Origin: Streptomyces sp. I05A-00742
GTDB taxonomy: Bacteria > Actinomycetota > Actinomycetes > Streptomycetales > Streptomycetaceae
Assembly: GCF_013055795.1 (NCBI RefSeq)
Contig: NZ_JABETO010000010.1
Span: 62,001 to 126,000, forward strand
Direction of reading: 5' to 3'
DNA length: 64,000 bases
The notes under the pieces were generated by a model that saw nothing but the letters and a program-made list of their open reading frames with translations, searched no databases and had not been told where the DNA came from. Both the position numbers and the translations under genes were made by a program. This document shows, in pieces, positions 24,387-25,134 of the stretch (positions are counted from its first letter, which is position 1; each line of letters begins with the position of its first letter).

Positions 24387-24397
24387 CGGTGACGGCA

Positions 24398-24412
24398 TAC
24401 CCCCTGGGGGTA
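24398..24412. promoter_or_regulatory. CsoR-type operator upstream of copZ
   Basis: TACCCCCTGGGGGTA is a perfect 15-bp palindrome and lies within ATACCCCCTGGGGGTACTAT. It matches the C-run/G-run inverted repeat bound by the copper sensor CsoR in actinobacteria. The TACTAT at 24411-24416 reads as a -10 box, so bound CsoR would block the copZ promoter. Confidence 0.8.
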
Positions 24413-24461
24413 CTATGAGGTCGCAGTCGCCAACCGGTCCACCTTCACCGAGGAGCACAGC

Positions 24462-24752: not shown

Positions 24753-24793
24753 GGGCAAGGACCTTGATTTCCGTTCAGGGTCCTTGCCCTTTT
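24753..24793 (+). terminator. Intrinsic terminator of copZ
   Basis: An 11-bp perfect stem (GGGCAAGGACC at 24753-24763 and its complement at 24779-24789) is followed by TTTT. It separates copZ from the structured transcript that follows. Confidence 0.9.
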
Positions 24794-24838
24794 ACGTCCC
24801 TGTTTGGCGGACGAAAACAAGAGACCTAGATCACAGCA

Positions 24839-25134
24839 ATTTGGGGGTAACCATTCCGGGCCTCGATTGGTCTAACCATGCAGTGCTGGATCGTCTTGGG
24901 GGACGGGCCGGCCACGCGTGGCCGGGACACGTACCCGGGGAGCTTTGAGCGGCCCTCCCGTCCGTACGTTGTCCCGGCAGATCGCGTCCGAAGGCGGCCC
25001 GTCGCACGGGCCGCCGGCACAGTGAGCGCATGGCGCGCATTTGAGCTCCCGGACGGATCCCGTGGGGGGAATCCGTTTCGGGACGGAAAGCGTCCCGCTC
25101 CGACCCGTGGGGGGATCGGAGCCGGGGCGCTTTT
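24839..25134 (+). ncRNA. Candidate structured small RNA between copZ and citA
   Basis: Promoter-like boxes TTGGCG (24804-24809) and TAGATC (24827-24832), 17 bp apart, precede the region; the start near 24839 is an estimate. Hairpins follow: an 18-bp perfect palindrome at 24908-24925, a 10-bp perfect stem with CGC loop at 24993-25015, a 6-bp stem with loop CCCGTGGGGGGA at 25053-25076, a hairpin CGGGACG/CGTCCCG at 25079-25097, and a terminator stem at 25089-25131 whose inner loop is again CCCGTGGGGGGA, followed by TTTTC. The last two hairpins share one strand and are mutually exclusive. A 92-codon frame from ATG 24878 crosses the terminator, so I favour RNA. From memory, a small RNA named scr2736 is reported next to S. 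coelicolor citA; this may be its relative. Confidence 0.6.
25089..25134 (+). terminator. Intrinsic terminator of the candidate RNA
   Basis: AGCGTCCCGCTCCGA (25089-25103) pairs with TCGGAGCCGGGGCGCT (25116-25131) with one mismatch and one bulge, followed by TTTC. The 12-nt loop matches that of an earlier hairpin at 25053-25076. Confidence 0.8.

What the first reader, a model, noticed from the sequence alone, without database searches (positions are those of the whole stretch)
24839..25134. Structured transcript with twin identical hairpin loops between copZ and citA
Seen directly: five hairpins in about 230 bp, two of which (25053-25076 and 25098-25121) have different stems but the same 12-nt loop CCCGTGGGGGGA, and the last is an intrinsic terminator. 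A copZ terminator lies upstream and promoter-like boxes precede the region, so it looks like an independent unit. The 25079-25097 hairpin shares CGTCCCG with the terminator stem, so the two structures exclude each other, as in an attenuator. Loop conservation against stem change suggests the loop is the active part, perhaps pairing with C-rich RNA. From memory, a small RNA scr2736 is reported at this locus in S. coelicolor.
Basis: partly seen in the sequence, partly recalled or inferred. Interest (0 to 1): 0.85.

Follow-up and report, generated by a model that had tools for sequence, protein, structure and literature searches.

The report
Streptomyces RNA with repeated G-rich loops
The twin hairpin loops are real and almost unchanging across Streptomyces; they form the tail of a longer stand-alone regulatory RNA that seems built to soak up a partner with runs of C, and the public family entry covers only part of it.

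Summary
In detail: 25053-25076 and 25098-25121 are hairpins with different stems and one 12-nt loop, CCCGUGGGGGGA; the second is a terminator. Rfam already names the place Scr2736 (RF02831, 48 bits), but its 64-position match ends at the first base of loop 2. In relatives conservation runs about 250 bp further upstream: Crp-like box, ECF-type promoter (GTAACC-N17-GTCTAA), UUGGGG-loop hairpins, a long hairpin with loop CUUUGAGCGGCC, then the twin hairpins. Stems covary: 17 of 50 pairs change on both sides, reached by 0 of 500 shuffles. Of 98 full-length RNAs 77 carry four [GU]UGGGGG motifs; shuffles average 0.2. The exact twin is in 196 of 297 Streptomycetaceae genomes; 172 of 176 loci with it lie beside citA, the other four have short flanks. 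Some carry three or six loops. It is not an attenuator (no gene downstream on its strand) nor coding. I think it is a decoy RNA: its G loops match the C-run loops of 6C RNA, or bind a protein. Support for 6C is modest: rank 15 of 2120 windows, and 6C keeps its C loops where G loops are absent.

The parts
24753..24793 (+). terminator of copZ, separates the RNA from the upstream gene
   Evidence: read: GGGCAAGGAC ... GTCCTTGCCC TTTT
24821..24834 (.). Crp-like palindromic box GAGACCTAGATCAC (two letters off the quoted consensus here)
   Evidence: AGATCAC in 113 and GATCACA in 115 of 126 unique loci; GTGACGCACGTCAC in L083 and GTGACGCAGGTCAC in L251, L253, L255 fit GTG(N)6GNCAC quoted in PMC10033298
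24847..24852 (+). -35 element GTAACC, ECF type
   Evidence: a -35/-10 pair of this kind in 108 of 136 loci, spacer 17 in 101 of the 108
24870..24875 (+). -10 element GTCTAA; start of transcription inferred near 24882
   Evidence: GTCTAA in 100 of 108 promoter matches; the start site itself is inference
24892..24905 (+). 5' hairpin GUC-UUGGGG-GAC (one copy here; two in many relatives)
   Evidence: 4 of 6 pairs change on both sides; 77 of 98 RNAs have four G motifs in all
24921..24978 (+). central long hairpin; apical loop CUUUGAGCGGCC at 24943-24954
   Evidence: TGAGCGGCCC invariant in 37 of 37 rows of A1; same loop on other stems in other genera
24993..25015 (+). GC-rich hairpin in a stretch that varies between species
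   Evidence: sequence; columns variable or gapped in the other rows of A1
25047..25083 (+). G-loop hairpin 1, loop CCCGUGGGGGGA at 25059-25070
25086..25134 (+). G-loop hairpin 2 and intrinsic terminator, loop CCCGUGGGGGGA at 25104-25115
   Evidence: apical stem, 6 of 6 pairs change on both sides
25046..25104 (+). stretch matched by Rfam RF02831 Scr2736
   Evidence: 48 bits, gathering score 43

Best explanation
The twin hairpins are the 3' end of a stand-alone non-coding RNA of about 250 nt (240-400 nt in relatives), full-length Scr2736. It is made from its own promoter, probably by an ECF sigma factor with help from Crp, and ends at the second G-loop hairpin, which doubles as terminator. It carries several hairpins that present the same G-rich loop, UGGGGG(G)A, and acts as a decoy: each loop captures a C-rich partner, most likely the C-rich loops of 6C RNA (GGGGGGA pairs with UCCCCCC, two loops on each RNA), and so relieves targets that 6C represses. 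A separate central loop, CUUUGAGCGGCC, does another job, perhaps protein binding or stability. Shown here: promoter conservation, structure, loop constancy, loop repetition, distribution. Inferred: transcription start and end, Crp and ECF control, decoy action. Least certain: 6C as the partner.
For: Stems covary around unchanged loops (122 cells changed on both sides, shuffles 31.4, slid versions at most 20). Four [GU]UGGGGG motifs in 77 of 98 RNAs, 3 in 17, 5 in 3, 2 in 1; shuffled mean 0.21. Loop number varies, which suits titration: six twin-type loops in one array in L190 (G499; L232, Streptantibioticus silvisoli, shows the same three pairs at the same contig positions), three in L079, L188, L191. 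6C RNA is found in 197 of 199 Streptomyces genomes at E<=1 (92 above cut-off); in 54 6C loci read, both loops hold U followed by six to nine C in 53. GGGGGGA/UCCCCCC with loop access counted gives -10.6 and -8.4 kcal/mol for the two G loops, rank 15 of 2120 background windows. In Mycobacterium abscessus the C loops of the 6C-type RNA B11 repress a target with a tract of six G in its 5' UTR, and restoring the pairing restored repression (passages of PMC10470900). A stand-alone RNA with G-rich regions that neutralises C-rich small RNAs exists in Bacillus subtilis, RosA (passages of PMC8216469).
Against: 6C keeps its two C loops in genomes that have this RNA without G loops (G508, G516, G623, G511, G501, G486, G492, G506) and in genomes where I saw no such RNA beside citA (G497, G487, G484), so the two do not rise and fall together. 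All 12 loop letters are kept, though CCCGU is not needed to pair with 6C. In a scan that allowed any part of the RNA, 6C ranked only 69 of 1062 windows (that background included the antisense strand of the gene itself). UCCCCCC is not special to 6C: TCCCCCC occurs 11 times in the 64-kb window, both strands. No transcript data were examined; S. lividans RNA-seq did not validate RF02831 (table in PMC8079986).
Confidence: 0.4

Rival explanations
1. Protein-titrating RNA: the repeated hairpins bind an RNA-binding protein that reads the whole loop CCYGUGGGGGGA / UUGGGGGA, as CsrB or RsmZ do for CsrA, but with another protein.
For: The complete loop is kept, not only the G run; CCC can pair inside the loop with GGG and gives a shaped loop; number of hairpins varies; no conserved long mRNA complement found; the complement of the central loop is also nearly absent elsewhere.
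Against: No candidate protein was identified. I recall, but did not test, that CsrA is absent from Streptomyces.
Confidence: 0.3
2. Trans-acting antisense RNA: the G loops or the UGAGCGGC loop pair directly with mRNAs.
For: Invariant loops in a stand-alone RNA; loop pairing with mRNAs is reported for 6C-type RNA (PMC10470900 passages; a reference title there says independent of RNA chaperones).
Against: In five genomes (G013, G005, G109, G000, G508) GGCCGCTCAAA occurs at the RNA gene itself and otherwise 0, 0, 0, 1 and 2 times. TCCCCCCACGG has 8, 11, 14, 11 and 3 sites in G000, G013, G005, G109, G508, about as many as the reversed control (19, 10, 17, 14, 5) and with the gene's own two sites in the first four. 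The only sites shared at orthologous places are in the RNA gene (blastn of 3-kb loci, 45 of 47 hits fetched; the two left out are the gene's own in G109). Short seeds of 6-8 nt were not tested.
Confidence: 0.2
3. Cis attenuator or 3' regulator of a neighbouring gene.
For: Stays beside citA (172 of 176 loci), also where its orientation differs; competing hairpin 25079-25097 exists in the window and a helix of six or more pairs is possible in 45 of 138 cores.
Against: No gene downstream on its strand in the window; its orientation relative to citA differs between clades (L143, L144, L148; L251-L256 and L259); 93 of 138 cores have only a four- or five-pair competing helix.
Confidence: 0.04
4. Small protein gene mistaken for an RNA.
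For: ORFs of 92 and 54 aa on the + strand and others on the - strand can be read across the interval; the longest closed ATG frame found in any of 98 RNAs has 89 aa.
Against: Loop spacing runs through 45 to 52 nt, all remainders of 3; stems covary; the longest closed ATG frame has a median of 19 aa in 98 RNAs.
Confidence: 0.01

Closest known systems
Rfam RF02831 Scr2736 (Streptomyces RNA 2736)
   Same: same locus, same strand; the window scores 48 bits over the 43-bit cut-off
   Different: the model has 64 positions and ends at the first base of loop 2; 5' G hairpin, central hairpin and second G loop lie outside it
6C RNA, RF01066 (B11 in mycobacteria)
   Same: two hairpins with repeated single-type loops; short stand-alone actinobacterial RNA
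   Different: loops are runs of C, the complement of these; no match to the RF01066 model
RosA and RsaI sponge RNAs of Firmicutes (PMC8216469 passages)
   Same: stand-alone RNA with several G-rich regions complementary to C-rich regions of small RNAs
   Different: no relation by sequence was sought; here the G runs sit in conserved hairpin loops; no interaction has been measured
CsrB / RsmY / RsmZ protein sponges (recalled)
   Same: repeated hairpins with GGA in the loops, variable number
   Different: loop sequence much longer and stricter; no CsrA shown

Membership tests
Scr2736 (RF02831) | covariance model score at or above 43 bits | tested here: met
   48 bits at 25046-25104
Scr2736 (RF02831) | expressed small RNA in Streptomyces | not testable with these tools
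   PMC8388888 passage reports confirmed expression in S. coelicolor, citing Vockenhuber et al., and a homolog among predicted S. ambofaciens sRNAs; PMC8079986 table says not validated by RNA-seq in S. lividans; the original paper is not held
6C RNA (RF01066) | model match, two hairpins with six or more C in the loops | tested here: not met
   no RF01066 match in the window at the gathering score; loops hold G
RosA-type sponge RNA (works like) | G-rich accessible regions complementary to a C-rich small RNA of the same cell | tested here: met
   7-pair match to 6C, -10.6 and -8.4 kcal/mol with access counted; not unique, rank 15 of 2120
RosA-type sponge RNA (works like) | binding to and control of the C-rich RNA in the cell | not testable with these tools
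   needs bench work
CsrB/RsmZ-type protein sponge | CsrA/RsmA in the same cell | not tested
   not searched; absence in Streptomyces is recall
CsrB/RsmZ-type protein sponge | several hairpins with GGA in or at the loop | tested here: met
   loops end GGGGGGA or GGGGGA
Transcription attenuator | terminator with a competing structure upstream of a gene on the same strand | tested here: not met
   citA is on the opposite strand; a competing helix of six or more pairs is possible in 45 of 138 cores only

The most novel reading that the evidence does not exclude
A Streptomyces-side RNA acquired a set of G-loop hairpins that mirror the C loops of the widespread actinobacterial 6C RNA, so that loop-to-loop contact between two twin-hairpin RNAs tunes 6C; the dose is set by Crp and an ECF sigma factor and by the number of loops, up to six twin-type loops in one array.
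Probability: 0.3. Interest if true: 0.75.

Novelty: new variant of a known kind. Interest (0 to 1): 0.55.

Why it matters
I met no partner or function of this RNA in the listings and passages I saw. A near-universal Streptomyces RNA with an invariant repeated loop, a Crp-type control box and a matching antisense loop in 6C RNA gives a direct test of RNA sponging in a group with no known Hfq (recalled), in which development and antibiotic production answer to Crp. The Rfam entry could be rebuilt to the full RNA.

Tried and rejected
Attenuator reading: rejected mainly because no gene follows on the strand. Coding frame: rejected. Promoter directly in front of hairpin 1: none conserved in ungapped columns. 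Conserved long mRNA complements of either loop: none found in five genomes. Co-occurrence of 6C with the G loops: tested, no tracking. The first interaction scan was poor as a test, since the whole RNA and the antisense strand of the gene itself were included; I repeated it with G loops only and the gene left out, and both ranks are given. Weak RF02831 matches elsewhere in the same genomes: the ones fetched as loci held no exact twin loop and were set aside as chance or repeats; many others were listed without a locus and not read. The two matches outside the genus (G429, G476) are below cut-off and without the exact loop.

Limits of the counts. A1 (37 rows) is the window plus 36 of the other 53 members of the 54-member diverse set; 17 were left out to shorten it, without a criterion. 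That set comes from 98 loci selected for exactly two exact loops and a strict promoter match, so loop constancy in A1 is by construction; the figures free of this are those (the 89 of 90). The sets of 136 and 176 loci hold some places fetched twice. 28 of 136 failed the promoter pattern. In one search two loci (L004, L032) were printed at the wrong place. The output was cut in the middle, so L257 and L258 were seen only in part there (L257 again). In G541 no such RNA was seen beside citA; other coding-like sequence lies there.

Full report
What is there. Rfam calls 25046-25104 Scr2736. The model stops at the first base of loop 2, so it shows neither the twin nor the terminator.

Distribution. 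RF02831 is above its cut-off in 184 of 199 Streptomyces genomes and in 24 of 296 genomes across the class, all 24 in this genus. The exact twin pattern is in 196 of 297 genomes of the family and 9 of 17 genera, against none for the reversed pattern. By my count of that list 151 of 153 genomes of the window's own genus have it and 45 of 144 of other genera. The two without it, G422 and G578, keep near copies: CCTGTGGGGGGA as second loop in G422, five G in the second loop in G578 (L187). A scan of a collection of 84,980 species for the variant with a shorter 3' arm of hairpin 1 gave 30 contigs, all Streptomycetaceae by title: Streptomyces, Actinacidiphila, Streptantibioticus, Wenjunlia and one unnamed member.

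A longer RNA. Ungapped columns upstream of hairpin 1 show no conserved promoter, but words conserved at varying distance do exist: AGATCAC (113 of 126 unique loci), GTAACCA (117), TCTTGGG (119), TTGAGCG (122). They order into a Crp-like palindrome, GTAACC-N17-GTCTAA, hairpins GUC-UUGGGG-GAC, and a long hairpin with loop CUUUGAGCGGCC, then a variable stretch, then the twin hairpins. The distance from -35 to loop 1 is 177 to 334, median 247, in the 108 loci with a promoter match. The promoter geometry AACC-N16-GTCT is that of sigma-E promoters such as hrdD in a table of PMC6767563 (passage); the -35 CGTAAC also resembles the BldN consensus (recalled). Main texts of PMC6767563 and PMC10771440 do not hold SCO2736; the second reports one intergenic small RNA among its sigma-E sites, unnamed in the passage. 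The Crp consensus GTG(N)6GNCAC is taken from passages of PMC10033298.

Structure. In 37 aligned RNAs 96.8% of cells pair, 17 of 50 pairs change on both sides (shuffles 10.5, none of 500 as high), 122 cells change on both sides (31.4), and sliding the partner destroys it. The stem around loop 2 covaries at 6 of 6 pairs and the 5' G hairpin at 4 of 6; the stems of hairpin 1 have no pair changed on both sides and so say little. MFE folds keep both G hairpins in 134 of 138 unique cores; L047, L048, L055 and L085 do not.

Two modules. In genomes of other genera that lack the twin (G508, G516, G623 of g127; G511, G501 of g116; G486, G492, G506) the place beside citA still has the central loop or its core UGAGCGGC on a different stem, for example GGGAACG-CUUUGAGCGGC-CGUUCCC, mostly with promoter-like boxes and a GGGG-UUCCGGCGGA-CCCC-type hairpin, but no G loops. 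G541, also g127, shows none of it. In a Streptomyces clade (L251-L256, L259) the RNA lies on citA's own strand and keeps the twin G loops (CCCGUGGGGGGA and CCUGUGGGGGGA); in the four read in full (L251, L253, L255, L256) it follows a Crp-like palindrome and the central hairpin is gone. G184, G105, G047 and G050 have one G loop. In G497, G487 and G484 I saw no such RNA beside citA. So the central loop and the G loops are separate modules. Of 176 loci with two or more exact loops 172 lie within 660 bp of a citA match and the other four have too little flank; three of them (L143, L144, L148) are on citA's strand.

How it works. Repeated identical loops on changing stems, in varying number, point to capture of a partner. 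The loop complement UCCCCCC is what 6C RNA presents twice (53 of 54 loci read), and loop access leaves -10.6 and -8.4 kcal/mol for the two G loops, better than 99% of background windows though not unique. A 6C-type RNA is known to act through C loops on a six-G tract (PMC10470900 passages), and a G-rich sponge of C-rich RNAs is known from Bacillus (PMC8216469 passages). Against this, 6C keeps its loops where G loops are missing, and the CCCGU part of the loop stays fixed without need. A protein reader of the loop is the main rival. No long conserved mRNA complement of either loop was found in five genomes.

Known or new. Scr2736 is in Rfam, and its expression is reported second-hand (PMC8388888 passage). 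Searches of the held library brought no title, abstract start or opened passage that describes the longer RNA, the G loops, its promoter or a 6C partner; of the nine papers listed only PMC8388888 and PMC8079986 hold a name of the RNA itself, and the passages of PMC3765725 (Moody 2013) do not. The original description (Vockenhuber et al., 2011, recalled date) is not held and may say more.

Noticed in passing
L138 (G440:C1:174213-174276): A second, lone copy of the hairpin pair with no citA match in the locus and without the conserved upstream part; its second loop has decayed to CCCATGGGGA.
   Followed up: partly
L190 (G499), L232 (Streptantibioticus silvisoli), L079, L188, L191: Tandem growth of the G-loop hairpins: six loops in L190, three in L079, L188 and L191.
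   Followed up: partly
L251-L256, L259: The RNA gene lies on citA's strand in one Streptomyces clade; in the four loci read in full it sits behind a TGTGAC-N4-GTCACA palindrome.
   Followed up: partly
L002 1501-1576 and other 6C loci: The linker between the two hairpins of Streptomyces 6C RNA reads CCGUGGGGA in many loci, close to the G loop studied here; it varies between species.
   Followed up: no
window 24397-24413: Palindrome ATACCCCCTGGGGGTAC just upstream of copZ, like a CsoR copper-repressor box (name recalled).
   Followed up: no
G069:C1 and G128:C2: Sets of identical-scoring weak RF02831 matches (31.6 bits six times; 24.3 bits five times) that look like dispersed repeats.
   Followed up: no
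PMC8388888: S. ambofaciens is reported to have an antisense RNA to gltA2, a citrate synthase gene; whether this is read-through from this RNA was not checked.
   Followed up: no
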